Virus record (IMG/VR): IMGVR_UViG_3300025872_000376
Coordinates: 1 to 21,234 of that record
Strand: one strand, 5' to 3'
Length of the DNA stretch: 21,234 nucleotides
From: a virus
Shown: one piece after another, positions 1 through 16,615 of the stretch
Numbering within the stretch: position 1 is the first letter of the stretch
Layout: every line of letters starts with the position of its first letter
Notes under the pieces: generated by a model
What the model was told of the DNA's origin: nothing
Seen by the model: the letters and a program-made list of their open reading frames with translations, nothing else
Databases searched by the model: none
Made by a program: the position numbers and the translations under genes

Positions 1-495
1 CCCGCTCAATCCCGAGAGGATCGGGCTGGACGTGCTCGATGCGAGTTGCGTGAGGTTGGCGACACCGCCCGAGCGGACGGCGGCGAGTTGGTTGGTCGTG
101 TTCTGGCCGAGGATGCCGAGGTTGCGTTCGGTGTCGTACACGCTCTGCCCGGCAAGAGCGCCGAACGTGCCGCCGTTGTCGCCGATGCCCGCCTCGCCGG
201 CGGCGACGCGGAGACGGCCCATGACCTTCTGCGATTCGTCGATCCGCTTCTGGCGTTCGAGTTCCGACGCGGCGAGTAGTTGCTGTTGCTGAACCTGCGA
301 GGCGTTGGCCTGCGCCTGCATCGAGGCCGAGATGGCCTTGTTGCGTTCGGACGCTTGCACAGCCTGCATCGCGCCACCAGCAATCGCGCCAGCGGCGGCG
401 GTGCCAGCGGAGAATAGGGCAGCGCCAACGGCGGCCTGCGTCGAGGCTTCGGCGGCGGGGACTGCCAGCGCCCCGAGCGGTACAAGGAATCCCAT
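1..495 (-). CDS. Internal virion protein, gp14-like (partial, C-terminus off the left edge)
   Basis: The first 165 residues are present; the window edge removes the rest. The N-terminus is hydrophobic and rich in Ala and Gly (about residues 1-45, beginning MGFLVPLGALAVPAAEAS). A long Ala/Gln/Glu-rich helical stretch follows (about 46-90, with QVQQQQLLAASELERQKR), then a Gly-rich part with GEAGIGDNGGTFGALAG. This is the usual composition of the small internal virion protein of T7-like phages (gp14), which is ejected with the DNA and forms part of the conduit through the envelope. Its place directly after tail tubular protein B is also that of T7 gp14, with gp13 absent. The ATG at 493-495 lies two bases past the stop of the upstream gene. 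No strong ribosome binding site is visible, so coupling is likely. The identification rests on composition and position, not on catalytic motifs. Confidence 0.7.
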   Translation of the reverse strand, partial: MGFLVPLGALAVPAAEASTQAAVGAALFSAGTAAAGAIAGGAMQAVQASERNKAISASMQAQANASQVQQQQLLAASELERQKRIDESQKVMGRLRVAAGEAGIGDNGGTFGALAGQSVYDTERNLGILGQNTTNQLAAVRSGGVANLTQLASSTSSPILSGLSG

Positions 496-496
496 A

Positions 497-3400
497 TCAC
501 TGTGTCCCTGGGGTGAAGGTGCCGATGATGTCCGCCGCTACGATCGTGGCGGGTTTGGGCGATGAGTTCCGCAGGGTGATCGTCGCGGTGTCGTTGAACC
601 CTTGCGGGAACGCGAAGAAGGTGCCTTCGTTCTCGATGTCCACCGTCGTATCGCGGGGCGTGAACGTGTAGTCCCGCGTCGTGCCCGCTTGTGAAATCCG
701 CACGGTGTACGCGGCGGTGTTGCGGTGGACGAGGGCGAGCTTGTCGAGTTGCAACTTCCCGTCGATGACGGTCTGGTTGTTCTGGTCCCGCTGGTACGGG
801 CGGGAGAGTTCCGCAACCATATCGAAGGTGCGACCGAGGTAGCACGCGAACGCGGAGTAGTCGCCGGTGATGGTGACGGTCCCGGCGGTCGAGCCGGGGT
901 TGCCCGACAGCACCGTGCCGGGCGTTGTCGTGGTGCCTGTTATGGAGTGCGAGGTCGCAAAGGGCGTGGTGTTGTACGTCAGCGCGATCCGCTTGCCTCC
1001 GGGGTCAACAACGATCGACGTGACCGCCGCCGCCGGGGTGATGGACGGGGCGGTGAACTTCGTGGACCACCCGCCGCTGAATCGCCACGCCTCGATGTAC
1101 GGCGTGGATGCGACGCCCAGGTACACGCCGCGCCCGTCCGGGTGCCACGCGACGGCCTGCCCGTTGCCGCTCGGAAGCGACGACGGGTTGGTGTACTTCG
1201 TGCCGAATACCGTCGTGAACGGGTAGGCGGTGACGTAGGGCGACGTTGCGTGCGAGACGGCGATGGCGGTGCCGTTGTAGTTCCACGCCACGTCGGTCGC
1301 GTTGCCGACCGGCAGCGTGCCGGGGTTGGCCAGTTTCGATCCGAAACCGCTGCTGGTGAACGGGTAGGCGGTGATGTAGGGCGTCGTGGTGTGCGCCACC
1401 GCGATGTAGGTGGAGTCGGGGTGCCACGCGACATTCTTGCCCGCGCCGGTCGGGAGCGTGCCGGGGCTGGAGAACTTCGAGCCGAAACGGTCGGCGGTCC
1501 ACGCCCACACCTCGACGTAGGGAGATCCGCTGGTGGCGACGGCGACGTAGTTACCATTCGGGGACCACGCCACGCCGGCGCAGGTCGCGGTCGGCGTGCT
1601 GGTCGCGGTGATCTTGCGACCCAGCCCGGCGGATGTGAACTTGTACGCCATGAGCGATCCGCCCGTGACCGCCGCGAGCAGGTCGCCGTCCGGGTGCCAC
1701 GCAACATCGAACACGGGGTTGCCCGGATTGCTGGAAGGATCGGGCAGTTTGGTGCCGATGCCGCCACTCTTAGTCCAGGTGTAAACCGCGATGTACGGGG
1801 ACGTGGACAGCGCGAACGCGATGTAGTTGCCGTCCGGGCTGATCGCGGATCGCACCGCTTGCTGGGCGAGCACGCCGGTCGTGCCGGTGCCAAACGCGGT
1901 CGGGTTCGAGATGTCTGGGAAGTCCGGGCCGGTCACGATCACGTCGATCTTGTCGTCATTGAACCCGAGCGTGAACGTGGTGGTGGTGCTGCTGAACGTG
2001 CCGGTCTTGGAAACCATGTGGTCGATGTGCGGTGCGTAGGGCATCCCGTCATCCGCGCCATCCTTGGCGAGCGCGAGCCGCATGAACACGAAGTAGCCGG
2101 GGTATTCCTCGACGAGCAGGTACGCGAAGTCACGGATGACCGCCACGTCGGCGATGCGGTCGTCGTCGTCGAGCGTGATGCGGGACCACGCTGATTGCAC
2201 CTTCTCGTTGCCGCGCCAGAAGTAGCGGTAAACGTAGATGCTGCTCGCGTCGGTCGGCAGCGCGAGCACGGTGTTGGTGTTCAGCCCGGTGTGGATCGTG
2301 CGAATATCCGTGGGCAGGTAGCGGTCGCAGTGGGCGGTGATGTTGGCGGCGGTGCTCGACGTGATCGAGTCGTCGTAGAAGTATTCGTACACCTGCCCGC
2401 CCGCGCCGACCTGATCGGAGGCGAAGTAGAGTTGGTTTTCAAGCACGGCGGGCTTCACGTCCATCGAGTCGTAGGATGTGGACGGTGTAATCGCGGCGGT
2501 GGTGGGCGAAAGCGTTTCGGGGGCGTTGAGTTCAAACTGCCGACCGGCCCGGGTGAAGATGACCAGTGACTTTCGGAACGGGGTGAGCGAGTCCACGATG
2601 GCGACCTCATCGGAGGCGATAGCCACGTCGATCGGGTCGGAGTCCACAAGGTTGTTTGCGTCCTCGATGAAGAAGTTGAAGAAGTCGCCGGCCTGCGAGA
2701 ACACCACATTGTCGTCGGCCCCGATGGCGAGGCGGTTGCGGTGGAACACGATGTCGCGGATGGTGTTGCCCACGAAACTCGGCAGTGGGTTCGTATCCGT
2801 GTCGCCGGTTTCGCGGAACTTCCAGTCGATCACGTCCACGTCGAAGTAAGTGTCGTAAATCGCCCATTGATGCGACGCCCCGCTTAGCCCTCGCTCGTAG
2901 TGAATAGTGACAACATCAGAGGCGATTACGCCAGTGTAAAGAGCGAGGTTGTTTATCGTCCCATCAAGATACTCGCTGCCCGCACGGTTGCGTCCAACCA
3001 CCGACCCGAATCCGATCGACGCGAACGTGTCAAGCAAGTCCTGCGTCGTGTAAGTCACCGGCAGGCTGACGCCATCGACGTAGAACTGCACGGATCGCGT
3101 GGACGGCGTGGCGGTGACGACGACGTGGTGCCATGCGTTGTCAACGATTCCAGCCGCGCTGGTGGTGCTGGCGTCAAGAACATGCGCCGCGTCATCCTCC
3201 CATCGGAGTCGCAACTTGTCGGCGGCGGTGATGCTCACCTGTACCCAGACGTTGCCGCCGCCGTCGCCCAGGTCTGCAATCATGCCGACCGCGCCGGCGG
3301 TGGATCGCTTGATCCAAAACTCGATGCTCATGCCGCTGGCGATGGCGGTCCCCCATGACCCAAGCGCCGGGATGTCGATGCGGGCGGTTGTTCCGTTGAG

Positions 3401-4714
3401 CGTAACCGCCGCGCCATTCTCGCCAGCCCCGTTAGCATTGAGTGTGTAGCCGCTAGTGTAGGTCGCGTCATAGGTCGCGTTGCCTTCAAAGTTGTCGGCG
3501 ACCGTTCCTGATGTTTCGTTGAATATCCAGTACGCGAACAAATCGTCGGTGTTGAGCACGCCGTCGAAGTAGCCGCCGGTGGGGAGCGGGTTGTACCGTC
3601 GCACGATTTGGATCGGCATGGTGCTCGCGTCGAGTTTCGCATCTTTCTGCGACGGGGCGGGCACCCGCACCCAGCGGTCCACGATGTTCTCGACGAATGC
3701 GGAGGCGTCGCCGGTGCCCGCCGTGACGACATCGCCGATGCCGCCGGTGTAGAACGGGAATCCCGACCCGGAAAAGTCGTACACGTTGCCGTCAGTCGGA
3801 GACGTGATGCAGTTAGCCCCGAAGGTCGCGCCCGCGCCGCCGTAGGGCGACGTGATAATGAACTTGGCGATGCCCTGTGAAACCCACTGCCATCGGCACT
3901 GTGCGTTCTTCGCCCCGGCGTTTTGCAGAGCGCGTGTGATCGCATCGGCAACGTGCCGCATCTTGGTGATGCTGGAGTCGTCCTCCATGTTCCACACCAC
4001 GTCGTAGGTTACGGTGGAGCTATCAGCCTTGGTGAACGTAATCTTGAACCCACCGGGGTTGCGGGTGCTCGCCTTCCATGTCGCCACGTCGCCGTAGTCC
4101 GGAGAGCCTGCCCGGTTGTATGTGGGCAGCGCCAGCGTTGCCGGGGTCGCTCCGGGAACGTACTTCCAATAGCCAGCAGTGCGCCCGTTGGAGTCAGTCT
4201 TGGTGCGGTGGTAGGTGTTGACCGCTGGAGTTTTTCGGGTCATCTCCTCATAGTCGTCGTGCTCGTCCGTGACCGTGTAGGCGTCGGAGTCGGACGAGTC
4301 AGATTCGACGGTGCGGTTTACGAGGATCGTGTAGTCGTTGCTGCTGATGAGCCGCATGTCGTCGGCGGTGGCGCTGTTCGCATCGAGGTACGTTTGCGCG
4401 GCAGTGCTGATCTTCTTTTCGACCTCGCCGCCCGAGTTCACCACATCGAAGAACCGCAGCGTCGAGTCGCCGTAGGCGATCAGGTATTGCTCGTCCCCGT
4501 CGCGGTTGATCGCGTGCAGGCGGTAGTTGCCTGCGGCGGTCAGGTCGGTGATCGCCGAGCCGAAGTGCGTGGTGCCGTTCCGCTTGGACATGCCATCCGA
4601 GACGGACAGGTACACGTTGTCGGCGGACGCGACTTGGTTTGGGTGGCGCAGCGCCGCTGCCTGCTGGGAAGCGCCGCCGAACAGGCTCGGGATCGAGATG
4701 CGTGTGTTGGGCAT
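497..4714 (-). CDS. Tail tubular protein B (gp12-like) with inserted LamG and seven-bladed propeller domains
   Basis: This 1405-aa protein is the nozzle protein of a T7-like tail, made much longer by insertions; T7 gp12 is about 794 aa. The N-terminus (SIPSLFGGASQQAAALRHPN) and the part after residue 610 (RDIVFHRNRLAIGADDNVVF, then SLTPFRKSLVIFTRAGRQFE) are typical of tail tubular protein B. So is the last 125 residues, with RPYQRDQNNQTVIDGKLQL. Residues about 385-610 form a LamG/concanavalin-like jelly roll (FAYWIFNETSGTVADN; GMSIEFWIKR; NAWHHVVVTA; VQFYVDGV). Residues about 945-1270 contain seven repeats of about 45 residues of the type VAWHPDGxYIAVAxxxxPYI, a WD40-like propeller. The start ATG lies five bases after the stop of tail tubular protein A. 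Nozzle function is known for the family. The insertions probably lie on the outside and bind glycans or the receptor, which is inference. Confidence 0.9.
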   Translation of the reverse strand: MPNTRISIPSLFGGASQQAAALRHPNQVASADNVYLSVSDGMSKRNGTTHFGSAITDLTAAGNYRLHAINRDGDEQYLIAYGDSTLRFFDVVNSGGEVEKKISTAAQTYLDANSATADDMRLISSNDYTILVNRTVESDSSDSDAYTVTDEHDDYEEMTRKTPAVNTYHRTKTDSNGRTAGYWKYVPGATPATLALPTYNRAGSPDYGDVATWKASTRNPGGFKITFTKADSSTVTYDVVWNMEDDSSITKMRHVADAITRALQNAGAKNAQCRWQWVSQGIAKFIITSPYGGAGATFGANCITSPTDGNVYDFSGSGFPFYTGGIGDVVTAGTGDASAFVENIVDRWVRVPAPSQKDAKLDASTMPIQIVRRYNPLPTGGYFDGVLNTDDLFAYWIFNETSGTVADNFEGNATYDATYTSGYTLNANGAGENGAAVTLNGTTARIDIPALGSWGTAIASGMSIEFWIKRSTAGAVGMIADLGDGGGNVWVQVSITAADKLRLRWEDDAAHVLDASTTSAAGIVDNAWHHVVVTATPSTRSVQFYVDGVSLPVTYTTQDLLDTFASIGFGSVVGRNRAGSEYLDGTINNLALYTGVIASDVVTIHYERGLSGASHQWAIYDTYFDVDVIDWKFRETGDTDTNPLPSFVGNTIRDIVFHRNRLAIGADDNVVFSQAGDFFNFFIEDANNLVDSDPIDVAIASDEVAIVDSLTPFRKSLVIFTRAGRQFELNAPETLSPTTAAITPSTSYDSMDVKPAVLENQLYFASDQVGAGGQVYEYFYDDSITSSTAANITAHCDRYLPTDIRTIHTGLNTNTVLALPTDASSIYVYRYFWRGNEKVQSAWSRITLDDDDRIADVAVIRDFAYLLVEEYPGYFVFMRLALAKDGADDGMPYAPHIDHMVSKTGTFSSTTTTFTLGFNDDKIDVIVTGPDFPDISNPTAFGTGTTGVLAQQAVRSAISPDGNYIAFALSTSPYIAVYTWTKSGGIGTKLPDPSSNPGNPVFDVAWHPDGDLLAAVTGGSLMAYKFTSAGLGRKITATSTPTATCAGVAWSPNGNYVAVATSGSPYVEVWAWTADRFGSKFSSPGTLPTGAGKNVAWHPDSTYIAVAHTTTPYITAYPFTSSGFGSKLANPGTLPVGNATDVAWNYNGTAIAVSHATSPYVTAYPFTTVFGTKYTNPSSLPSGNGQAVAWHPDGRGVYLGVASTPYIEAWRFSGGWSTKFTAPSITPAAAVTSIVVDPGGKRIALTYNTTPFATSHSITGTTTTPGTVLSGNPGSTAGTVTITGDYSAFACYLGRTFDMVAELSRPYQRDQNNQTVIDGKLQLDKLALVHRNTAAYTVRISQAGTTRDYTFTPRDTTVDIENEGTFFAFPQGFNDTATITLRNSSPKPATIVAADIIGTFTPGTQ

Positions 4715-4718
4715 TGGT

Positions 4719-5519
4719 TTATCGCGGGGTGACGTAGAACTGCGTGCCGGTGATGGAACGTCCGAACGCTGTGCTGGCGAGGTTCACGTCGCGGTTGCTG
4801 GCCTCGCGGCGGTGGATCATGCGGTGGGCGCGGTCGAGTTCTTCTCGCAGGAAGTTGTCCTGCCCGTTGCCGCCGACGATGCGGCGGTGGTAGATGAGCG
4901 ATGCCGAGCGGGTCGCGTACTCGCGCATCTCGGGCGTGAGGTCGGCGAAGTCGAGGTCACGCACCACATCGCAGAACACGTTGTCGGTGAACGTGAACGT
5001 GAGGTTGTCGTTGTCGTAGAGCTTCCCGGCCCGGAGCGAGATGTCCCGCCACACGGACGTGCCGGTCGAGTCGATTGCCAGGGTGTCGGCGGGCACGACG
5101 ATCTCGCTGGTCGTGACGGTGGTGAGCGTGCCGCCCGTTGCGGTCGCCCCGCTGGTGCCGCCGGTCAGGGTTTCTCCGCCAGTAAACGTGCCACTGACGG
5201 GGACCAGTTCCATCTTGTTTGAGGCGTTGATCTGGTAGAAGATGCCGGTCGCGCCCGATGTGGACTCGGTGACGGTTTCGCCGGCCTCGAATGTGCCCGC
5301 GCCCGTCACGGCGATGTTCTTGGTGGCGAGCTTGTGTTCCTTGTTGACATCGGTGTTCTCATGCCATCCGTTGGACAGGATGGCGGTTAGTTCGCGGTCG
5401 AGCACCGCTTCGGCGCGGGCGGCATCGGACACGCCGCCGGTGTCGAGCGCGGTCACGGGGAACTGCTTGACCGCTTCGAGAATCTGGTTGACCGCCGCGA
5501 GCTTAGTGAGTCCCGCCAT
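4719..5519 (-). CDS. Tail tubular protein A (gp11-like)
   Basis: A 266-aa adaptor protein that forms the ring between portal and nozzle in T7-like tails. The N-terminus has the family hallmark: a Asn-Gln-Ile-Leu stretch with PVTAL, an Asp-Ala-Ala-Arg-Ala helix, and LSNGWHENTD at about residues 48-57, which corresponds to the GW-F-N motif of T7 gp11. The C-terminal half (EMREYATRSASLIYHRR, then DRAHRMIHRREASNRDVN) is also typical. Residues about 73-130 hold two copies of the pattern GTFxxGETxTxxTSGATG, a small repeat seen in many phage structural proteins, inserted into the adaptor fold; T7 gp11 is only about 196 aa. I chose the ATG at 5519 because a near-perfect AGGAGGT stands seven bases upstream; a longer in-frame ORF has no such site. 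The first 17 bases overlap the upstream holin-like gene. Confidence 0.9.
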   Translation of the reverse strand: MAGLTKLAAVNQILEAVKQFPVTALDTGGVSDAARAEAVLDRELTAILSNGWHENTDVNKEHKLATKNIAVTGAGTFEAGETVTESTSGATGIFYQINASNKMELVPVSGTFTGGETLTGGTSGATATGGTLTTVTTSEIVVPADTLAIDSTGTSVWRDISLRAGKLYDNDNLTFTFTDNVFCDVVRDLDFADLTPEMREYATRSASLIYHRRIVGGNGQDNFLREELDRAHRMIHRREASNRDVNLASTAFGRSITGTQFYVTPR

Positions 5520-5784
5520 GAGGCACCTCCTGTACGCGAGCCGTTTCGATGATCTGTCTCCGGATGATGTCGCCGGTGAACGCCAGCGCACCCATGATGA
5601 GAACGCCTATGGCAATCCACGCCGCTTTCTGTGCGGACCTGGCTTGCTGCTCCACCCGGTCGAACCGGACGATGATGCCCCGTTCGGGCTGGTCGTCTCC
5701 AGTCAGGATCGAGTTCAACTTCTCGACCTCCTTGCGGAGCGGTTCCATTGCCTCGCGGACGGCACGTTGAATGTCATTGCTCAT
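5503..5784 (-). CDS. Small coiled-coil plus one-TM protein, holin-like (XhlA-type)
   Basis: A 93-aa protein with an amphipathic, charged N-terminal half ([18 protein letters not shown] and [16 protein letters not shown]), one hydrophobic segment at about residues 54-70 ([17 protein letters not shown]), and a charged tail. This layout resembles the haemolysin XhlA/holin-like proteins of phages: a coiled coil followed by one membrane segment. Its place in the late region before the tail tube genes is compatible with a lysis role, but no endolysin adjoins it. The start at 5784 overlaps the upstream stop codon as ATGA. A GGAGG lies about 13 bases upstream. A longer in-frame reading of 120 aa has an Arg/Pro-rich N-terminus that belongs to another frame. 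The function is inferred from topology only; a virion membrane protein is the alternative. Confidence 0.65.
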
Positions 5785-7607
5785 ACCGTTCGATCCCTCC
5801 GTCGTGTGTGGAAGCGGTGGCGGGGCGGGAACGTCGTGGCGGCGGTGGACGCGGCATAGACGCACCCGACAAGGTGCAGGGTGAAGTCGGTGACTTCCGG
5901 GTCGTCGGTGGTGATGACGAGATCGCCGGTGAAGCTGCCCACGTCCGCATCGGACAGGCAGACGATGAGTTGGGCGGACGCGCCGGGGCCGAGCGTGCCG
6001 GGCAGTGCCTGCGATTCAACCCAATGGGTGGGCACCGTGACGCCGGTGATGGTCATGGTGCCCGCCCCATTGTTGGTAACGGTGAACTGCTTGCACGAGT
6101 CGCCAAGCCCCTGCACGATGCACGCGCCCCAATCCACAGTGTCGCCGCTCGAAAGCTGCGTCTCACCGGATGCGACATGGGCCTCGACCTCGATCTCGGT
6201 GCCCAGGCCGGTGATGGCGAAGGTGTACGGGTTCTCGTCGGGATCGTCGGACTCGATGGTCACGGTGTCGGTCTTGGTGCCCGTGCTCGTAGGAGCGAAG
6301 GTGATCGCACAGATGACGCTGGTGCCGGGCGGGATCGTGTTGGTGAACGGGAACGAGGCGACGCTGAACTGCGTGCCGGTGGTGAGCGCCACCTTGGGCG
6401 TGCCGGTCAGGTTGAGCGCGACATCGCCGGTGTTGGTGATCTGGAACCAGTGCGTCGCGCCGGTGGTGCCGACTGATGCGGTGCCGAAGTCGGTCCCGTC
6501 CGCCGTGGTCGGGGTCGCGTCGCCGTCGGGGATGTCGATGCCAAGCCCGCGAACGCGGATGTCCGAGGCGGTGCCGAACCCTTGGATGGCGAACGTGTAC
6601 GGGTTCTCGTTGGCGTCGTCGTTGGCGATGCTGACCGTCGCGGTGCGAGTGCCGGCGGCGGACGGGTTGAACCGCACCGTGAACGTGGTCGATCCGCTTG
6701 CGGCGACGGGGCTGGACGGTTGCGAGGTGACGGAGAAGTCGGCGGCGTTGGTGCCCGACAGCGCCACCTTGGGTGTGCCGGATAGCGTCAGGTCATCGAC
6801 GCCGGTGTTCTCGATGGTGAACGTGCGGTCCACGGTGCCGCCGGTGACGAGGCAGTTCCCGAAGTCGGTGTGGTCGGTGGTGCTCGGCGTCACGTCGCCG
6901 CTAGCGATGCTGACGCTGTTGCCCTTGACGTTCATCTCGGGGCTGGCGACGCCTGTGCCCTGGATTGCGAACGTGTAGGGGTTCTCGTCCGAGTCGTCGT
7001 TGGCAATGCTGATCGTAGCCGTTCGCAGCCCGGAGGCCGACGGGTTGAACTGCACAACGAAAGTTGTGGACCCGGAGGCTGAAACGGGAGACGACGGCTG
7101 TGTGGATACGATAAAGTCGCCGGCATTGGTGCCGGATAGGGCAACTTTAGGAGTACCTGTAAGTGTCAGACTTGCCGACCCCGTGTTCTCAATCGTGAAC
7201 GTGCGGCTCACGGTCGCTCCGGTAACGTCGCAGTTGCCGAAGTCAGTGTGGTCGGCGGTGGTGGGCGTCGTGTCGCCATCAGCGATGGAGACGCCGTTGC
7301 CCTTGACGTTCATCTCGGGAGTAGACGCAACAACGGACACTGTGCCCGACATGCCGCCCGTCATCGAGCCTGTAGCTGGCGGGGTGAAGGATGAGCTTGA
7401 GTAGCTCTGCCCGCCATTGTTGAGCGTTAAGGTGTACGCCCCGCCGGACAGAACAAGGTCGGCGTCAATCTCGGCGGGCGAGCCAATGTTGGCGGTCCAC
7501 GGCCCGGACGCGCTGCCGCCGGTCAACGTCCACGTTCCGTTTACGTCGGAGTCGGAATAGTCCCACGGATCATCGGCACCGCTGATGGTGATGTCGATGG
7601 TTGCCAT
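5781..7607 (-). CDS. Choice-of-anchor-D Ig-like repeat protein, putative virion decoration or fibre
   Basis: A 608-aa protein made almost wholly of beta-sandwich repeats. Residues 1-96 are a Gly/Ser/Thr-rich N-terminal domain ([20 protein letters not shown]). Four repeats of about 115-126 residues follow at 97-222, 223-348, 349-472 and 473-587. The first three share [29 protein letters not shown], the segment [17 protein letters not shown], and the end [17 protein letters not shown]. These are the marks of choice-of-anchor-D / ASPM-SPD-2-Hydin Ig-like domains, usually found in secreted or surface proteins of bacteria. The fourth repeat is degenerate. The last about 20 residues are Arg-rich and overlap the next gene. 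ATG 7607 was preferred because AAGGA stands about nine bases upstream. An in-frame start at 7805 would add a membrane segment. Lying between capsid and tail genes, it is probably a virion surface protein, though this is inference. Confidence 0.8.
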
Positions 7608-7805
7608 TGCGGAGTCCTTGATGATTGGGGTGGGCGCGGGACGCCACGCCGGCGGATGCGGCGGCAGCGGCGCGAGAACGAGACAGAGCTTCCAGACGAG
7701 GGCAATCAAAACCACCGCCAGCAAGGCGATGGCTTTGGGGATTTGGTGCGGGCGTTGGTCAGCCGAGAACTTCGACGTTGCCGAGCGAGCCGTCGATGGG
7801 GCCAT
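7608..7805 (-). other. Possible N-terminal extension with a membrane segment, in frame with the anchor-D gene
   Basis: Between the stop of the 98-aa gene (7759) and the preferred start of the anchor-D gene (7607) lie about 150 bases. They are open in the frame of the latter and have coding-like codons. They encode a hydrophobic stretch ([21 protein letters not shown], shown in two parts as [11 protein letters not shown] and [10 protein letters not shown]) followed by a Pro-rich linker. The only ATG upstream is at 7805, inside the 98-aa gene, and would give a 674-aa protein with a 66-residue N-terminal extension. TTG and GTG codons within the hydrophobic part are other possible starts. The segment looks like a signal anchor. 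Whether it is translated cannot be decided from the sequence. Confidence 0.4.
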
Positions 7806-8055
7806 AGCTTCCGGTCGGGATGTTGTTGGGGGTTCCCTGAACCTGGGCGGTGGAGTGGATCGAGCCGTCGTTGAACTCGAAGTGCCAGCGGTTGGCCCCG
7901 TCCGCGCGAATGTTGTACTCGCACGGGCCACGGTAGAAGTACCGACTCGGATGGACCTGCTCCAGCACGAACTCACCGTTGGGATCGCCGGTGGTGTAGT
8001 CCATGAACTCGCCGAAGTCGGGCATGTTGGTGATGCGAACGCGGATGTCGGGCAT
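7759..8055 (-). CDS. Small hypothetical structural protein (98 aa)
   Basis: A 98-aa protein that I do not recognise. It is rich in aromatic and polar residues ([20 protein letters not shown], then [19 protein letters not shown] and [17 protein letters not shown]), has no hydrophobic segment, and looks like a compact beta-rich domain. It ends in a Gly-rich stretch. The start ATG at 8055 has AAAGGA about nine bases upstream, placed 15 bases after the stop of the preceding gene, so the two are probably co-translated. Being within the late block between capsid and tail genes, it is likely to be a minor virion component. Its last part overlaps the possible upstream extension of the anchor-D gene. 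Confidence 0.7.
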
Positions 8056-8645: not shown

Positions 8646-9254
8646 TCAGGCGTTGCCGAGGAGAATCCACTTGACGACGATCGTGCCATCGAACTCCTGG
8701 GTCGCGTTGCCGTCCACGTCGGTCGAGGTGGCAAACCCGGTGTTGAGGTACAGGTCGGCGGCGGTGGTCATGCCGTTGGCGAACGCGACAGCAGTGGAGG
8801 CGAGGTCAACGGCGGTGCCGGCCACGTTGATGGTCGCGGACGACGTGAACGCGGTGGTCGGGACCACGTTCGCCATCGTGGACGTGAGGGCCACGTTCGA
8901 CGCCGCAGCGGTGCCGAGCGAGATCGCGCCGGTCGAGGACGCGTTGAGCGTGCTCGACAGCGTGGAGGTCGTGGTCTGCGTGACGTTGCCCGACACGCCG
9001 AGGATCAGGATGTTGCCCTCGGGGAAGTCGTAGAGCTTGGTGCTCTGGTACTCGGTGCCGTTGGTGACAGTCTGCTCAACGCCCGACAGGGTGATGACGG
9101 TCGTGTTGACGCCGGTGCCGCCGGGAACCTCCGAGACGGAGACGCCCGAGACGCCGGACACCGCCCCGACGCCGCTGACGAGCGTGCCGGGGTTGGTCGC
9201 CGCCTCGTTGTCCGTGCCGAGGAAGGCGGTTTTCTTGGAATCGTAGGTAGCCAT
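8646..9254 (-). CDS. Virion protein following the capsid gene, possible head fibre or decoration protein (202 aa)
   Basis: A 202-aa protein very rich in Thr, Ser, Ala, Val and Gly, with almost no Cys. The N-terminus carries a Gly/Val/Ser repeat-like tract (VSGVGAVSGVSGVSVSEV). The middle holds ALTSTMANVVPTTAFTSSAT, and the C-terminus ends in TQEFDGTIVVKWILLGNA. A C-terminal beta-strand with an aromatic residue after a segment such as LYLNTGFATSTDVDG is seen in phage structural proteins encoded right after the capsid gene. It is flanked by two strong terminators (9283-9321 and 8592-8625), so it forms a transcription unit of its own with the leader between. The ATG at 9254 has AAGGA about ten bases upstream. 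Function as a head fibre or decoration protein is inference. Confidence 0.7.
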   Translation of the reverse strand: MATYDSKKTAFLGTDNEAATNPGTLVSGVGAVSGVSGVSVSEVPGGTGVNTTVITLSGVEQTVTNGTEYQSTKLYDFPEGNILILGVSGNVTQTTTSTLSSTLNASSTGAISLGTAAASNVALTSTMANVVPTTAFTSSATINVAGTAVDLASTAVAFANGMTTAADLYLNTGFATSTDVDGNATQEFDGTIVVKWILLGNA

Positions 9255-9282
9255 ATTGGCAAGTCCTTGTGTTTGTGTGCTG

Positions 9283-9321
9283 GGAAGAAAGACCCGGCGG
9301 GGTCAACGCGACCCCGCCGGG
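9283..9321 (-). terminator. Strong intrinsic terminator after the capsid gene
   Basis: On the minus strand CCCGGCGGGGTC and GACCCCGCCGGG form a perfect 12-bp stem with the loop GCGTT, followed by TCTTTCTT. It lies 13 bases past the capsid stop. This is the position of the late terminator T-phi in T7, which lies just downstream of gene 10. It probably sets the high ratio of capsid to tail transcripts. Confidence 0.9.
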
Positions 9322-9333
9322 ATGGGTTCACGA

Positions 9334-10311
9334 TCAGGCGATGGCGATTTCGCCGCACGCTTCGGTGCGGAGCCACTTCGCGCCTTGCAGGAACGCAGCG
9401 CCGAACATCCAAGCGCGGTGCGTGGAGGTCTTGTCGGCGTACAGGGGTTCGATGCCGGTGAAGAACACCTGGCCGAACGCGCTGTTGTCACCGATGAAGC
9501 AGGCAACGGTCGTGGAGAAGTCGCCGTTGTACTGCGAGTCGGTTTCGGTCGTGACGTTCGTGCTGGGCATCTGGTTCGTCATCACGAGTTCAAACCCGGC
9601 GACGCGGATGAGGCGGCGTTCGAGCTTGCCGTTGACGCTCTGGTAGTCGTTGGACAGGAGCGAGTCGTCCTGACGCAGAACGCGGTCGATATAGGGCGTG
9701 ATGAAACCCACGCGGCCATCGCGGGGCACGTCCTTCTCGTCCATCTTCTGCGCGATTTCCTCCATGTCCGACTGGAACGCCTTGGAGCCGGTCAGCGTCG
9801 CGGGGTAAGCCGTGGCGATGGGGCCGGTGCGGGGCGAGTCGAGGAGGTTGCCGGCGGGGAACTCGCTGTTGGGGCCGGAGGCCGACTGGCGAGCGCCGAG
9901 GATGATCTGGCGGGCGAGGCGCACGTCCACCGTGCGGGCGATGGCGCGGGCGTGCTCGGTCGCAACCTGGGCGCGGGTGTCGTAGTGCGCGATGAAGTCG
10001 TCGTACTTCGACAGGTGGTTGGCCGAGACGAGTTCCTTGGAATCGACCGCGATGGTCAGTTCCTTGGTGATCGGGGCGTTGACGCCGACGATCTCGGTGC
10101 CGGCGGTGTGCTCGCTGGCGGAGGTTTTCCAGAGGCGCGGGAACTGGTGAGAGTTGCCGCTGGTGATCTGGTGCTTGAGGCCGTAGCGACCGAACACGGT
10201 CGCGGTTTCGTAGGCGGTCAGGAGCATCCCGGCGTACTGCTTGAGGGCGAGCGCCTGTGCGTCGCCGCTGCCGAGGGATTGCAGAGGATGATTCAGTGTG
10301 GCGTTAGCCAT
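9334..10311 (-). CDS. Major capsid protein (gp10-like)
   Basis: A 325-aa major capsid protein of the T7 gp10 type (T7 gp10A is 345 aa), forming the HK97-fold shell. Family features include the N-terminal QALALKQYAGMLLTAYETAT, a segment around KHQITSGNSHQFPRLWK with AGTEIVGVNAPITKELTIAV, DFIAHYDTRAQVATEHARAI, and near the end MTNQMPSTNV and FTGIEPLYADK. I chose the ATG at 10311 (MANATLNHPL), with GGAAA about 12 bases upstream. An in-frame extension to 10383 has no ribosome binding site and would lie within the untranslated leader. The gene is isolated from its neighbours by 206 bases of leader with two hairpins and by the terminator downstream, as expected for a very strongly expressed gene. 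Confidence 0.93.
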   Translation of the reverse strand: MANATLNHPLQSLGSGDAQALALKQYAGMLLTAYETATVFGRYGLKHQITSGNSHQFPRLWKTSASEHTAGTEIVGVNAPITKELTIAVDSKELVSANHLSKYDDFIAHYDTRAQVATEHARAIARTVDVRLARQIILGARQSASGPNSEFPAGNLLDSPRTGPIATAYPATLTGSKAFQSDMEEIAQKMDEKDVPRDGRVGFITPYIDRVLRQDDSLLSNDYQSVNGKLERRLIRVAGFELVMTNQMPSTNVTTETDSQYNGDFSTTVACFIGDNSAFGQVFFTGIEPLYADKTSTHRAWMFGAAFLQGAKWLRTEACGEIAIA

Positions 10312-10339
10312 GACTTGGTTTCCGTTTGAGGGGCGTGAC

Positions 10340-10363
10340 GCGAACCCGGACAATCCGGTTCGC
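10340..10363 (-). promoter_or_regulatory. Hairpin in the capsid mRNA leader
   Basis: On the minus strand GCGAACCGGA pairs with TCCGGGTTCGC around a three-base loop, with one bulged G. The hairpin stands about 29 bases before the capsid start and is not followed by a T tract, so it is not a typical terminator. A role in mRNA processing or stability (as an RNase III site in T7 late leaders) is possible but unproven. Confidence 0.5.
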
Positions 10364-10463
10364 AGTGCTTCGCCTCTGGTCACGGGTTCTCGTCACGACC
10401 AAACGGCCCCAGCTAAGGGGTTGTCGATTCGTCGATCCGGCCCTGTCAGAGTTTCAGCGCAGA

Positions 10464-10495
10464 CAAAACCGGCGGCGGTCTGTCACCGTCGCCGG
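10464..10495 (-). terminator. Terminator-like hairpin between scaffold and capsid genes
   Basis: On the minus strand CCGGCG, a mismatch and CGG pair with CCG and CGCCGG around the loop TGACAGA, followed by TTTTG. It lies 22 bases after the scaffold stop, at the head of the 206-base gap before the capsid gene. The T tract is short (four), so it may be a weak terminator or a processing site. Confidence 0.6.
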
Positions 10496-10517
10496 CCAAG
10501 GGAAAGGGGGCGGCTTG

Positions 10518-11438
10518 TCAGCCGCGTGGAAGCTCGTTCACCATCGGGGACAGCGCCATGCGTTGCATGACCCGGCGATGGAAGTCGGCGTCGTACTGTG
10601 GGTTCACCCGCCCGTTGTGGGTCGGGGCGAACTTGGGGTCGTTCATATCGCGGATGTACTCGGCCTGCGTGGTGTACGGGCCAGCGCCGCCGCCCGATCC
10701 GGGCTGGGCGGTCACGAGTTTGCCCGACTTGTCGCCGCCCGCCGCGCGGTCGTACTTGGCGGCGAGCCATTCAAACGCACGCAGCGAGGCGTTAGGATCG
10801 GTCGTCTGCTGGTTGTACCACTGGACCTCCTGCTCGGAGAGTCCAGCCTTGGCCCATTCGAGCACAGCCTGCACCTTCTCCTCGCCGCCGACCAGCTTGG
10901 CGGCGGCTTCGCGTTCGGCCTTTTGGGCACCGGCGACAAGCTGCGCCTCGTGTTGCAGGTAGGCGTCAACGACGGTGCGGGGGTAGCCCTTGGCTTTCAA
11001 GGCGGCGTACATCTCGTCGGTGAGCTTGCCGGTTTGCAGGTACGCGGCCTTGGCCTCGTCCTGCTTGACACCGGCGTATTCGAGCACCTGGGCGGGCGTG
11101 GCGTCGTCGGGCAGCGCACCAGCGGGCGGGGGCGCGTCGGGCGTGACGGTCAGGCCCGACTTGGCGGGATCGGTCGGGGCGGGCGGCTTGCCGGCGCGGG
11201 CCTTTTCGAGTTCGGTGTAGCTCTTGAGGAGGGCGTCGGTGCGGACGGCACCCTTCTCGGCGTCCCAGAACTTCTCGGGCACGTCGGCGGGACGCTGCTT
11301 GATGGTCTTGGCGAGGTCGTTGAGGTTGCCGGGGTCGGGTTTGGGCAACCCCTTCTCGCCGATCTCGGCCATGCGTGCGGGCGCGTCATCCTTGGGTGGT
11401 GCGGCGGGCGGTGCGGGAGGCGTTGAGACTTGTGACAT
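10518..11438 (-). CDS. Scaffolding protein (gp9-like)
   Basis: A 306-aa acidic, mostly helical protein that directs procapsid assembly and then leaves. The N-terminus is low-complexity and rich in Pro and Ala. The middle has EKFWDAEKGAVRTDALLKSY, a motif common to scaffolds of T7-like phages (WD-x-E-x-G-x-V/I-R-x-D-x-L-x-K-S-Y). Then come a second Pro-rich linker (VTPDAPPPAGALP), a helical section (QAVLEWAKAGLSEQEVQWYN, NASLRAFEWLAAKYD), and a C-terminal tail with PKFAPTHNGRVNPQYDADFH and basic residues RRVMQRM, a typical capsid-binding end. It stands between portal and capsid, as in T7. The ATG at 11438 has GGAAA about 11 bases upstream. Confidence 0.88.
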   Translation of the reverse strand: MSQVSTPPAPPAAPPKDDAPARMAEIGEKGLPKPDPGNLNDLAKTIKQRPADVPEKFWDAEKGAVRTDALLKSYTELEKARAGKPPAPTDPAKSGLTVTPDAPPPAGALPDDATPAQVLEYAGVKQDEAKAAYLQTGKLTDEMYAALKAKGYPRTVVDAYLQHEAQLVAGAQKAEREAAAKLVGGEEKVQAVLEWAKAGLSEQEVQWYNQQTTDPNASLRAFEWLAAKYDRAAGGDKSGKLVTAQPGSGGGAGPYTTQAEYIRDMNDPKFAPTHNGRVNPQYDADFHRRVMQRMALSPMVNELPRG

Positions 11439-11795: not shown

Positions 11796-13343
11796 TTAGG
11801 CTGCGGCGGGCATCGCCTGCTGTTCGGCGATCTTGCCGCTGGATTGGATGAGTTGCTGCGCGGCGGCGGCTCCGAGTTGCTGCTGCATCATCTGCGCCTG
11901 CTCGGCCTTCAACTGCTCGTCGCTCTTGATGAGGTTGACGGGGTTGATGTTGTAAGCCTGCATGACGCGGTTCATCAGTTCCTGCGAGTTCAGCCGCTCG
12001 GCGGCACCGGGGACCAGCGCCAGCGTTTGCAGGGCGGTGATGAGGCCGTCGAGTTCGGTCTTGCGGGCGAGCGCTTCGAGGCCGGTGAGCACCTTGAACG
12101 CCGACGCTTCTTTGAGTTCGACCGGCATCGGGATCATGTACCCCTTGTGTTCGAGCATGTACGCGATGCGCTCGAGCAGCGGTTGCTGTAGCTCACTAGC
12201 GATCATCGAGTACGACGACCCGATGGCACCCTCGATCTCCTGTGCGATCCGCATGATCTGCGTGGCGGTGACGCGCTCGCCGGTAGGCTGCGAGGTTGCT
12301 TCGAGCAGCATCGACCGGCCCAGCCGCTTCTCGATGACGCCCGCGACCTGCCCGGTCACGCCCATGTCGCCGGCCTGGTTCGTCTGCACGAACCCGATGC
12401 CATCGGGCATGTTGCCCGTGACGCGACCGGCGATGACGGTCATGTTCGGCTTGGCGAAGTCCTCGGCGGCGTAGCCCTTGGAGGGGTCGAACACCGGGAT
12501 CGTCTTTGCCATGCTGATCGACTTCTCGACGATGGCGCGGGTGAGTCCGTTGAGCGAGCGCAGGTCGGCGGACTTGAGTTCCACGAACCCGCGCGAGTAG
12601 TGCTCGCCGGGGTTCTCCTGGTAGCCGCACCAGATGAACGGCGACACCGGCTCGGTGGACTCGGCCACGACGGCCCCGTTGAGTTCCTGCGTGATGCGGT
12701 ACTTGCCGTCGCGGGTCCGCTCGCAGAGTGTGTAGAGGTCAAGGTCGTCCTCATACGATCCGGGCTTGGCCGGATCTAGGTTCGCCCTGGCGATCACGTC
12801 CTCGGACAGTTCGTTGCGGTCCACACATTCCTTGGTCACGACCCACATCAACCTGCGGGACGAGTCGCGGCGTCCGACCCAGTGGTCGAACCGGAACGCC
12901 TTGAACGAGAAGTCGTCCTGGATCTGAAACAGACCGTTGCCCGCAACGAGCACCTGTTCAAGCACCGGCGTCATCGCCGTGCGGTAGTTGGTGCGGTCGA
13001 GCATCGACTGGATGATGAGTTCGCGGGCGTAGAGGTAGCCCCGGAACGCCAGAATCTTCTCGGGCGGCACGGCGGGGTTGAACTCGATCTTGGGCGAGAT
13101 GGCGTAGCGGAACCACGCCATACCCGGCGCGAACAGCGACATGAGCAGTCGCCCTACAAGGTTCGATACCCCGTCACTGCCGACGTTCTGCCACGACAGG
13201 CCGGTTTCATCGGTGATCTTCTGCCCGACCGGGGGCAGGACAGAGGGGATGGTGAGCAGGGCGTAGGATCGAATCCGGTCCAGCAGGGCCATCCGGTCGC
13301 CGTCCGCTTTGTCGTAGCGTGCGGCGATGGTGCCCTTCTTCAC
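11796..13343 (-). CDS. Portal / head-tail connector protein (gp8-like)
   Basis: A 515-aa protein that forms the dodecameric portal through which DNA is packaged and ejected. T7 gp8 is 536 aa. Family features are the N-terminal LTIPSVLPPVGQKITDETGL, QNVGSDGVSNLVGRLLMSLF with PGMAWFRY, the segment TAMTPVLEQVLVAGNGLFQI, PFIWCGYQENPGEHYSRGF, and ATSQPTGERVTATQIMRIAQ. The C-terminus is rich in Gln and Ala (EQAQMMQQQLGAAAAQQL in similar wording), typical of gp8 crown helices. The start is GTG at 13343, overlapping the upstream stop as GTGA, with GGAGG about 15 bases upstream. It begins the head gene cluster directly after three small genes that follow the RNA polymerase. Confidence 0.93.
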   Translation of the reverse strand: MKKGTIAARYDKADGDRMALLDRIRSYALLTIPSVLPPVGQKITDETGLSWQNVGSDGVSNLVGRLLMSLFAPGMAWFRYAISPKIEFNPAVPPEKILAFRGYLYARELIIQSMLDRTNYRTAMTPVLEQVLVAGNGLFQIQDDFSFKAFRFDHWVGRRDSSRRLMWVVTKECVDRNELSEDVIARANLDPAKPGSYEDDLDLYTLCERTRDGKYRITQELNGAVVAESTEPVSPFIWCGYQENPGEHYSRGFVELKSADLRSLNGLTRAIVEKSISMAKTIPVFDPSKGYAAEDFAKPNMTVIAGRVTGNMPDGIGFVQTNQAGDMGVTGQVAGVIEKRLGRSMLLEATSQPTGERVTATQIMRIAQEIEGAIGSSYSMIASELQQPLLERIAYMLEHKGYMIPMPVELKEASAFKVLTGLEALARKTELDGLITALQTLALVPGAAERLNSQELMNRVMQAYNINPVNLIKSDEQLKAEQAQMMQQQLGAAAAQQLIQSSGKIAEQQAMPAAA

Positions 13344-14221: not shown

Positions 14222-16615
14222 TCAGCTAAAGAAGTAGGGCGAGTCGAGCACGCAGCGGATGTCGAGCGTTCCGGGCTTGGGCGGGTCGGGCAGCTTCAAG
14301 TCCGGGTTCCACTTCTGCATGTACTCCATCAGGTTTTCGATCAGCGGCATCGAGTGCAGGGCGACGAACTGCTCGCGGATCACGCGGTCCATCGCGTCCA
14401 CGTCGGCGGCGTGGGTCCAGTAGGAGTCATGCACGCCCGCGAACGACAGGCCAAGTTTCCGCATCTCGGTTGCGGTCATCATCAGGTGCGTCGCGTCGAT
14501 GGAGTGGATGAAGTTCGGCGCGAACCCGTTGACCTGGCGTCGGTACTTGACCTTCAACTCCCGCTCGGCGGGGATGCTCAGGTCGGCCAGCACCGTCGCC
14601 ACCCGGCGAATCCCCTCATGGAAGTAGGGCTGGATGCACGGCAGGCCCAGCGGGGTCTGCCACGCCACGCACCGATTATCGCCCGAGATCAGCCGGGCGC
14701 ACTCGGTCATCCACGCCATGATCTGCTTGGCCGACACACAGACATGCCCCATCTCGTCCATGACCGTGTTAGCCAGGTACATCGAGCAGGCGTACATCGC
14801 CTTCGATTCAAGCTGAGTGAGTTCGCTCAACTGGTCCCGCACCTGCTTGCGTGCCCCGACCTTGGTCACGCCGTACACCGTGGTCATCACGGGTTGCTTG
14901 ACCACTTTGCGGGTGATGAACCCGTCCAGCGCCACCGCCGCGCCGACACCGTTGGCGGCGTCCCGAGCGACCCGCTCGACCACGCGGGCGCACACCGCCG
15001 AGTACACATCCGCCGGCGACTCGCCGGGGATCAGGTTCACCGCCGCCGCACCGGACGGGTCGCGGCCCAGCGCGGCGTAGTGTTGGAGGCCATTGCACGA
15101 TCCGTCCTTCTGAATCGGGATGGCGCTGGCGTAGGACTCGGGATCGCCCGACTGGATCGCTTTCACAAGGTCGTCGTAGGCGGCGAGGAACTGCCACGGC
15201 TTTTCCGCCTCGCGCCACCGCTCGGGTTGGTCCTCGGCCACGAAGTTGTCGGTCCACTCCACCCGCTGATTGAACGGCACCTTGTCGATGCCCCACGAGT
15301 TGGCAACGTGGACCTTGAGCCAGTACAGCCCCCGCTTGCCGAGCGGCTTGGCGTCCGCGAACCGCATCATGCCGCGACACACATCGTCGCCCTGGTGCGT
15401 GAGGTAGAGGTTGATCGGGTACGCCCGGCCACGAAAGTCGATCTGGTGTGGCTGATACCACCGATCCACCGCCGAGAAGTCCTCCGCAACCTTGAGCGTG
15501 AACATGAACGACATGCGGTTGGATGCCTCGATGGCGTTGGCCCGATGAATCTTCGCCGCCTCCTTCTTCCACTTGTCGCGGTCCTCCTTGTTGATGTTGC
15601 CAGCGATAGGCGGCGGGAGCGGCAGGTCGTCGGCGCGTGGCATCCCGAGTTCACCGCCGCCATCGGACCATACATTCTTCACAGCGGTCAGGATGTCGGT
15701 ATTCACCGCCCACGCCGTCGCACCCATCGCGTTCACCGCCTCATACACCCTGTCGAGTTCGGCGCCTTCGAGTGCCTGCGCGATCCGCTTGGTGGGACGC
15801 TTGACGAGCGTGGTGCGGAGCTTCATGTACCCGCCACGCCCAAACTCCGTCCACGGCAGCGGCTCGACGAGCATCGGTTGGTATCGCGGGTAGAGGTGCT
15901 GACGCAGCGTGTGCCCGTCGTCGATCAGCTTCCGCGCCGGGTCGGTCAGGCGGATGATCTTGCGGGACCGGGTGGGATTTTCCCACTCGGTCTTGAGTTC
16001 AAACGCGGGCACGATCTTCTTCGTCCAGTCCTGACAGGTTGCGAACGAGCCGAGAATATCAATCAGCGCGACGCCGAGTTGCAACTGCTCTTTGAGGGGC
16101 CAGCGAGCGCCCTTCTCAAACTGGTTGGCGATGCGGTTGATATGCTTGGGCCGGAACTTGCGCCGGTCGGTGCGGATCAACTTCTTCCATGCGTCCTTGT
16201 TCTTCCGCACCGGAACGATGTTGACCTGGGCGTTGACCGCCTTGCCGATCTCCACCGCCACGGTGGTCAGCCACGCCCCGCGTGGGTTCGCCATCGTGTG
16301 CGACAGGAGCGTGTGCATGGCGATCAGGGCGATGCGGTCGCTTGGCAGGAGCAGGATGCCCCGACCGTAGGTGGCCCGCCCCTTGCCGGGCTTGCCGGCG
16401 GCAACCTCCCGCTGCTCGACGCGGATCGCCTGCTCGTACACCTTGAACCAGTGAACCATCAATCGCTCGGCGGGCTTGAGCGATGCCCCGTCGCCACGCT
16501 TGACAGCATGGGCGGCGAGGTCGTGGTATCGCTTAATGCCGCGTTCGAGCATCCCGGTTTCGAGTTCGATTTCCGCTTCAAGTTCAGACCCGGCCAGCAG
16601 TGATTGGTTGAGCAT
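14222..16615 (-). CDS. T7-type single-subunit DNA-directed RNA polymerase
   Basis: A 797-aa phage RNA polymerase (T7: 883 aa) that would transcribe the middle and late genes from phage promoters. Motif A is KDGSCNGLQHYAALGRD with Asp504 (T7 Asp537). Motif B is TRKVVKQPVMTTVYG with Lys573 and Tyr581 (T7 Lys631 and Tyr639). Motif C is NFIHSIDATHL with Asp707 (T7 Asp812), and VHDSYWTHAADVD follows. The specificity-loop area reads CVAWQTPLGLPCIQPYF, and the end DIRCVLDSPYFFS resembles the T7 C-terminus with its terminal aromatic residue. All catalytic residues are present. The ATG at 16615 is the first after an in-frame stop, with only a weak GGA upstream. Lying just before the structural genes, it has the phiKMV-type position rather than the early position of T7 gene 1. 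Confidence 0.97.
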   Translation of the reverse strand: MLNQSLLAGSELEAEIELETGMLERGIKRYHDLAAHAVKRGDGASLKPAERLMVHWFKVYEQAIRVEQREVAAGKPGKGRATYGRGILLLPSDRIALIAMHTLLSHTMANPRGAWLTTVAVEIGKAVNAQVNIVPVRKNKDAWKKLIRTDRRKFRPKHINRIANQFEKGARWPLKEQLQLGVALIDILGSFATCQDWTKKIVPAFELKTEWENPTRSRKIIRLTDPARKLIDDGHTLRQHLYPRYQPMLVEPLPWTEFGRGGYMKLRTTLVKRPTKRIAQALEGAELDRVYEAVNAMGATAWAVNTDILTAVKNVWSDGGGELGMPRADDLPLPPPIAGNINKEDRDKWKKEAAKIHRANAIEASNRMSFMFTLKVAEDFSAVDRWYQPHQIDFRGRAYPINLYLTHQGDDVCRGMMRFADAKPLGKRGLYWLKVHVANSWGIDKVPFNQRVEWTDNFVAEDQPERWREAEKPWQFLAAYDDLVKAIQSGDPESYASAIPIQKDGSCNGLQHYAALGRDPSGAAAVNLIPGESPADVYSAVCARVVERVARDAANGVGAAVALDGFITRKVVKQPVMTTVYGVTKVGARKQVRDQLSELTQLESKAMYACSMYLANTVMDEMGHVCVSAKQIMAWMTECARLISGDNRCVAWQTPLGLPCIQPYFHEGIRRVATVLADLSIPAERELKVKYRRQVNGFAPNFIHSIDATHLMMTATEMRKLGLSFAGVHDSYWTHAADVDAMDRVIREQFVALHSMPLIENLMEYMQKWNPDLKLPDPPKPGTLDIRCVLDSPYFFS

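What the first reader, a model, noticed from the sequence alone, without database searches (positions are those of the whole stretch)
497..4714. Tail nozzle protein carrying an inserted LamG domain and a seven-bladed propeller
Seen: gp12-like sequence at both ends and in the middle is interrupted by a LamG-type jelly roll (about residues 385-610) and by seven repeats of about 45 residues of type VAWHPDG-x-YIAVA-x-PYI (about 945-1270). The protein is nearly twice the T7 length. Known: T7 gp12 already has a beta-propeller core, and LamG and WD40 domains bind glycans or proteins. Inference: the insertions are surface-exposed binding modules, perhaps the host-range determinants, since no separate tail fibre gene is seen here.
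Basis: partly seen in the sequence, partly recalled or inferred. Interest (0 to 1): 0.75.

Follow-up and report, generated by a model that had tools for sequence, protein, structure and literature searches.

The report
T7-like nozzle with two inserted domains
A gene of an uncultured T7-like virus encodes the tail-tip channel protein with two extra sticky-looking domains built into its outer loops, and close relatives seem to have no ordinary tail fibres, so this protein may itself do the job of gripping the host.

Summary
Window 497-4714 (minus strand) is one 1405-aa T7 gp12-type nozzle with two extra domains. A LamG-type jelly roll (~residues 377-611) sits in a hairpin equivalent to T7 residues 316-319. 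A complete seven-bladed WD40-type propeller (955-1265) sits in the fibre-dock hairpin near T7 residue 634. Neither is part of the core nozzle propeller. In a well-supported clade of ten nozzles (this one included) LamG comes and goes at the same hairpin; only the window protein carries the propeller. The propeller belongs to a family common in environmental phages. There it comes mostly in multiples of seven blades, as stand-alone genes beside tail genes or as C-terminal domain of tail-fibre proteins. The window cannot show whether a tail fibre exists, because it ends just after the nozzle. However, three genome-length relatives have no T7-type fibre anchor and run from gp16 straight to terminase, while five of five T7-like controls have the anchor. 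Most likely the nozzle displays host-surface-binding modules in place of gp17-type fibres. The architecture is solid; the binding function is inferred. New variant of a known kind.

The parts
497..4714 (-). nozzle (T7 gp12-type tail tubular protein B), 1405 aa
   Evidence: Pfam Phage_nozzle E 8.7e-117, PHROG 457 tail protein, PDB gp12 E 4.7e-52
3587..4714 (-). residues 1-376: platform N-terminal strands, first propeller blades, nozzle tip
   Evidence: alignment with T7 gp12
2882..3586 (-). residues ~377-611: inserted LamG / ConA-like jelly roll, equivalent to T7 residues 316-319
   Evidence: Pfam Laminin_G_3 at 441-599; absent from T7 and from L002/L191, present in L001/L187, L186, L190
1964..2854 (-). 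residues 621-917: most of the gp12 core propeller, start of fibre dock
   Evidence: best PDB match 6r21 317-614
920..1852 (-). residues 955-1265: inserted seven-bladed WD40-type propeller in the fibre-dock hairpin, T7 residue ~634
   Evidence: unit HMM, seven repeats; AF2 strands; Foldseek 5yzv TM 0.78
500..919 (-). residues 1266-1405: rest of fibre dock and C-terminal platform
   Evidence: alignment; pLDDT mostly above 80-90 in the model
4719..5591 (-). adaptor (T7 gp11-type tail tubular protein A), 290 aa
   Evidence: Pfam Tube E 4.7e-25, two stretches
1..495 (-). start of the next virion gene (gp14-like), cut by the contig end
   Evidence: position after the nozzle as in T7; similarity to relatives by eye only

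Best explanation
The protein is the hexameric tail nozzle of a T7-like podovirus. It keeps the gp12 channel, gate and adaptor-binding parts and carries two extra folded modules, one in a hairpin of the core propeller near the nozzle tip, one in a hairpin of the fibre dock. Six LamG jelly rolls and six WD40-type propellers would therefore ring the tail. In this clade the gp17-type fibre appears to be missing. The best reading is that the nozzle displays the adhesion modules itself, the propeller sitting in the domain where T7 holds its fibre, and that their contact with a surface glycan or protein attaches the virion and may help trigger nozzle opening. Shown: architecture, insertion sites, modular gain and loss, the tail-fibre association of the propeller family, and lack of the T7-type anchor in genome-length relatives. 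Inferred: surface exposure in the assembled tail, ligand binding, and the trigger role.
For: Insert boundaries against T7 and other nozzles. LamG sits at the same hairpin in four of ten clade members, and LamG-bearing and LamG-free members are sisters (L187/L191 support 0.946; L190/L188 support 0.985), so the module comes and goes repeatedly. The propeller family has more than 560 stretches in viral contigs but 8 loci in 84,980 species genomes (the patterns of the two scans differ). It occurs as C-terminal domain of tail-fibre proteins L127, L171, L174 and L185, next to tail-fibre, fibre-assembly and virion genes. 54 of 63 complete proteins have 7, 14 or 21 blades. In 533 distinct blades the two most variable positions are in what by WD40 convention are the BC and DA loops, one face of the fold. 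PF03906, the fibre anchor, is absent from 9 of 9 clade contigs and present in 5 of 5 T7-like controls. In three genome-length relatives the gp16-type gene is followed by terminase with gaps of 265-545 bp. The T7 fibre sits between nozzle and adaptor fibre docks (PMC6702177; PMC10575957). T7 gp12 gains substitutions, including E306K near the LamG site, under host-range selection (PMC6962156).
Against: No binding data. No model of the hexamer was made, so exposure is inferred from T7. LamG is modelled with low confidence (pLDDT about 30-78). The propeller insertion is seen in one contig only. Variable beta-rich genes between capsid and adaptor, such as a chondroitinase-B-like protein in L001, could be the real receptor-binding proteins.
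Confidence: 0.6

Rival explanations
1. The inserts are docking or stabilising parts. The propeller binds a separately encoded spike, for example the Ig-repeat or beta-helix protein encoded between capsid and adaptor, and that spike recognises the host.
For: The propeller sits in the fibre-dock domain. The clade has variable beta-rich genes before the adaptor: HYDIN/ASH-type Ig repeats in the window, a chondroitinase-B-like protein in L001. WD40 domains often bind proteins (general knowledge).
Against: Relatives with other genes at that place have no propeller. The propeller family elsewhere forms the C-terminal end of fibres, where receptors are usually bound.
Confidence: 0.22
2. A T7-type or unrelated fibre is encoded in the missing part of this genome and the inserts only assist, for example by loose binding to surface glycans before irreversible attachment.
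For: The window ends just after the nozzle, so its own fibre gene, if any, cannot be seen.
Against: Relatives of 38.9, 44.1 and 44.2 kb lack the anchor domain, and gp16 is followed by terminase.
Confidence: 0.12
3. The propeller insertion is a chimera of assembly or a neutral accretion without function.
For: Only one contig shows it; a metagenome assembly could join two phages.
Against: The reading frame is open through both joints, GC3 of the propeller (0.89) matches the core (0.86), and the blades are diverged from each other rather than tandem copies.
Confidence: 0.06

Closest known systems
T7 gp12 tail nozzle (Pfam Phage_nozzle PF25675; PDB 6r21)
   Same: platform, seven-bladed core propeller, nozzle tip, fibre dock; place after the adaptor gene
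   Different: 611 residues longer; LamG in the hairpin at T7 316-319 and a second propeller at T7 ~634; the solved nozzles found by sequence are 776-830 aa
Stand-alone WD40-repeat protein of podovirus MW202701 (Manatee Spring) and the phage propeller family around it
   Same: 44-48% identity over four blades; same repeat motif
   Different: there a gene of its own near the capsid and tail genes, not part of a nozzle
Phage tail-fibre proteins with C-terminal propeller (L127, L171, L174, L185)
   Same: the same propeller family at the end of an adhesin
   Different: carried on a fibre rather than inserted in the nozzle
LamG-bearing nozzles of the same clade (L001/L187, L186, L190)
   Same: LamG at the same hairpin
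   Different: no propeller in the fibre dock
Nozzle of cyanophage A4 (PDB 9k09 chain U, 1005 residues)
   Same: similar fold found by Foldseek, also larger than T7 gp12
   Different: not found by sequence profile; what its extra residues form was not examined

Membership tests
T7 gp12-type nozzle | Phage_nozzle profile over N-terminal, middle and C-terminal parts | tested here: met
   E 8.7e-117, three stretches; alignment
T7 gp12-type nozzle | gene directly after the tail tubular A adaptor, in a T7-type virion module | tested here: met
   adaptor at 4719-5591, portal, scaffold, capsid and RNA polymerase in the same window
T7 gp12-type nozzle | hexamer forming the gated DNA channel | not testable with these tools
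   needs cryo-EM
Laminin G-type domain | profile match above the curated cut-off | tested here: met
   54.1 bits against 27.6; relatives 42.9-77.2 bits
Laminin G-type domain | ConA-like jelly-roll fold | tested here: inconclusive
   model pLDDT 30-78 in this part; Foldseek matches to proteins with lectin-like jelly rolls only at low TM
WD40 propeller | seven four-stranded blades closing into a ring | tested here: met
   seven repeats, mostly four strands each, TM 0.78 to a solved WD40 domain; family members mostly have 7, 14 or 21 blades
phage receptor-binding protein | binds a host surface receptor | not tested
   inferred from module sharing with tail fibres

The most novel reading that the evidence does not exclude
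A clade of T7-like phages has lost the gp17-type tail fibre and has turned the nozzle into the adhesin. Interchangeable modules (LamG, WD40 propeller, other domains, even gene splits with linker-borne domains) are plugged into fixed loops of the nozzle, so host recognition and channel opening lie in one protein.
Probability: 0.45. Interest if true: 0.75.

Novelty: new variant of a known kind. Interest (0 to 1): 0.55.

Why it matters
In T7-like phages the fibre senses the host and the nozzle holds the gate, and how the signal passes between them is unsettled. A nozzle that carries its own binding modules would place both in one protein and give a simpler system to study. The phage propeller family, frequent in environmental phages but matched in only five of about 50,700 deposited phage records, is also a candidate class of receptor-binding domain with an easily read repeat code.

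Tried and rejected
The idea that the seven repeats are the gp12 core propeller was rejected: the core blades align separately, on either side of the nozzle tip, and relatives have them without the repeats. LamG in deposited phages: no tblastn match at 1e-5, so its origin is open. The propeller in a T7-type nozzle elsewhere: none in the propeller loci nor in the nozzles examined. Adding stand-alone propellers to the alignment for structure prediction misaligned them, so the model was made without them. The literature library gave no paper on WD40 propellers as a phage receptor-binding module; absence from this library proves little. A Collar family search of the window returned nothing. A 140-residue stretch in L192 that looks to the eye like a discoidin-type domain had no Pfam match, so it is not claimed.

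Full report
The window is a 21,234-base virus record, a fragment of a T7-like podovirus. On the minus strand it holds a T7-type RNA polymerase (14222-16615), portal (11796-13343), scaffold (10518-11438), capsid protein (9334-10383), adaptor (4719-5591), the nozzle (497-4714) and the start of the next virion gene. The nozzle starts four bases after the adaptor stop codon.

Check of the observation. The nozzle ORF is open for 1405 codons. Pfam gives Phage_nozzle (E 8.7e-117, three stretches), Laminin_G_3 at residues 441-599 (E 2.5e-14) and WD40-type hits around 950-1245. The best solved relative is T7 gp12; residues 621-914 match gp12 317-614. A profile made from the repeats of a stand-alone WD40 protein of another phage finds seven consecutive units at 957-1255. 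The total is 173.8 bits, against at most 6.2 bits in 200 shuffles. Unit 2 is weak on its own but lies in register.

Where the inserts lie. Alignment with T7 gp12, with four other cultured T7-like phages and with metagenome relatives places LamG (about 240 residues) in the hairpin at T7 316-319. The propeller (about 336 residues) lies in the hairpin at T7 634. In T7 the first hairpin belongs to the stretch that returns from the nozzle tip into the core propeller. The second lies in the fibre dock, the domain that with the adaptor holds the fibre (PMC6702177; PMC10575957). The domain borders in T7 are read from the text of that paper, not from coordinates.

Structure. Two AlphaFold jobs were run on overlapping pieces because the whole exceeds the limit. 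Residues 615-1405: mean pLDDT 74.6, seven repeats of mostly four strands in the insert (pLDDT about 55-80), the remaining fibre dock and platform mostly 80-93. Foldseek returns T7-type nozzles first, and separately a solved prokaryotic WD40 domain with TM 0.78 over 302 columns (5yzv). The propeller is therefore an extra domain, not the core. Residues 1-945: mean pLDDT 75.5, core blades mostly around 90, LamG only 30-78; the LamG call rests on sequence. Matches are again nozzles first.

Relatives. Two searches with the nozzle and its alignment found further relatives. Ten nozzles, the window protein included, form a clade with support 1.000 against T7 and others. LamG is at the same hairpin in the window protein, L187 (the same contig as L001), L186 and L190, and absent in L188, L191 (the same contig as L002), L192, L193, L196 and L003. 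LamG-bearing and LamG-free members are sisters in two well-supported pairs (L187/L191, L190/L188). The module has therefore come or gone several times at one place. Only the window protein has the propeller; in L192 and L196 the contig ends before that site could be seen, and in L003 within it. Of 2,167 deposited phage records with a nozzle match none covers 80% of it.

The propeller family. Five deposited phage records matched. Of 63 distinct complete proteins 54 have 7, 14 or 21 blades, the expected signature of whole seven-bladed propellers being duplicated. In four proteins the propeller is the C-terminal part of a tail-fibre protein (L127, L171, L174, L185). Neighbouring genes include tail-fibre, fibre-assembly, tape-measure and virion proteins. 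Across 533 distinct blades variability peaks at unit positions 17 and 46, which by WD40 convention are the BC and DA loops on one face; much of the rest is strongly conserved, though positions 8 and 10 in the AB loop also vary. This is what a binding face on a fixed scaffold would look like, but it is not proof.

Is there a tail fibre? The window cannot answer, since T7 encodes its fibre after gp16 and the window stops at the gene after the nozzle. The T7 fibre anchor PF03906 is absent in all nine clade contigs and found in all five T7-like control genomes. In three contigs of 38.9, 44.1 and 44.2 kb the gp16-type gene is followed by T7-type terminase with gaps of 265-545 bp (gp16 identity for two of them). 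The 44.2-kb contig has about 109 bases of its start repeated at its end, with the nozzle running across the ends into gp14, so it is probably complete. A fibre of another family cannot be excluded. Several members carry variable beta-rich genes between capsid and adaptor: Ig repeats in the window and a chondroitinase-B-like protein in L001.

Mechanism. The best reading is that six copies of each module ring the tail and bind the host surface, in place of or in addition to a fibre, with the propeller in the domain where T7 holds its fibre. In T7, selection for host range brings substitutions in gp12, including E306K close to the LamG site (PMC6962156), so the nozzle can respond to surface chemistry. 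The main rival is that the propeller docks a separate spike. The architecture and the modular exchange are shown; exposure, binding and the trigger role are inferred.

Novelty. The nozzle family, LamG and WD40 are all known. Their combination at these two sites, in a clade that appears to lack gp17-type fibres, was not found in the solved structures, deposited phages or papers searched here. It is a new variant of a known kind.

Noticed in passing
L193:8968-13448: The nozzle is split at the fibre-dock site: one ORF (8968-11367) ends in a Gly-Ser linker and an extra Cys-containing domain; a glycosyltransferase-9 gene and a methyltransferase-like ORF follow; then fibre dock and platform come as a separate ORF. 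It also lacks most of the nozzle tip.
   Followed up: partly
L003:4772-8007: The nozzle is divided between two ORFs at the platform/propeller boundary, the first ending in a Ser-rich linker plus Cys-containing domain; the second has a long SSEPA repeat at the fibre dock where the contig ends.
   Followed up: partly
L106-L185: A virus-enriched WD40-type propeller family, mostly in units of 7, 14 or 21 blades, rare in deposited phages.
   Followed up: partly
L001:4950-6596: Chondroitinase-B-like protein between capsid and adaptor genes, just above the Pfam cut-off; possible spike.
   Followed up: no
window 5781-7976: Protein with about four HYDIN/ASH-type Ig repeats between capsid and adaptor.
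   Followed up: no
window 4719-5591: The adaptor is 290 aa with its Tube match broken in two, suggesting an insert of about 100 residues there too.
   Followed up: no
L209:699-1949: Phage integrase gene in a T7-like relative, suggesting a temperate life style.
   Followed up: no
L001 nozzle residues ~225-470: Three similar stretches of about 55 residues in the nozzle-tip region (motif like GDxIYxL), one copy in L002, none in the window protein.
   Followed up: no
window 18346-19203: ORF that looks like a DNA cytosine methyltransferase by its sequence motifs; not searched.
   Followed up: no
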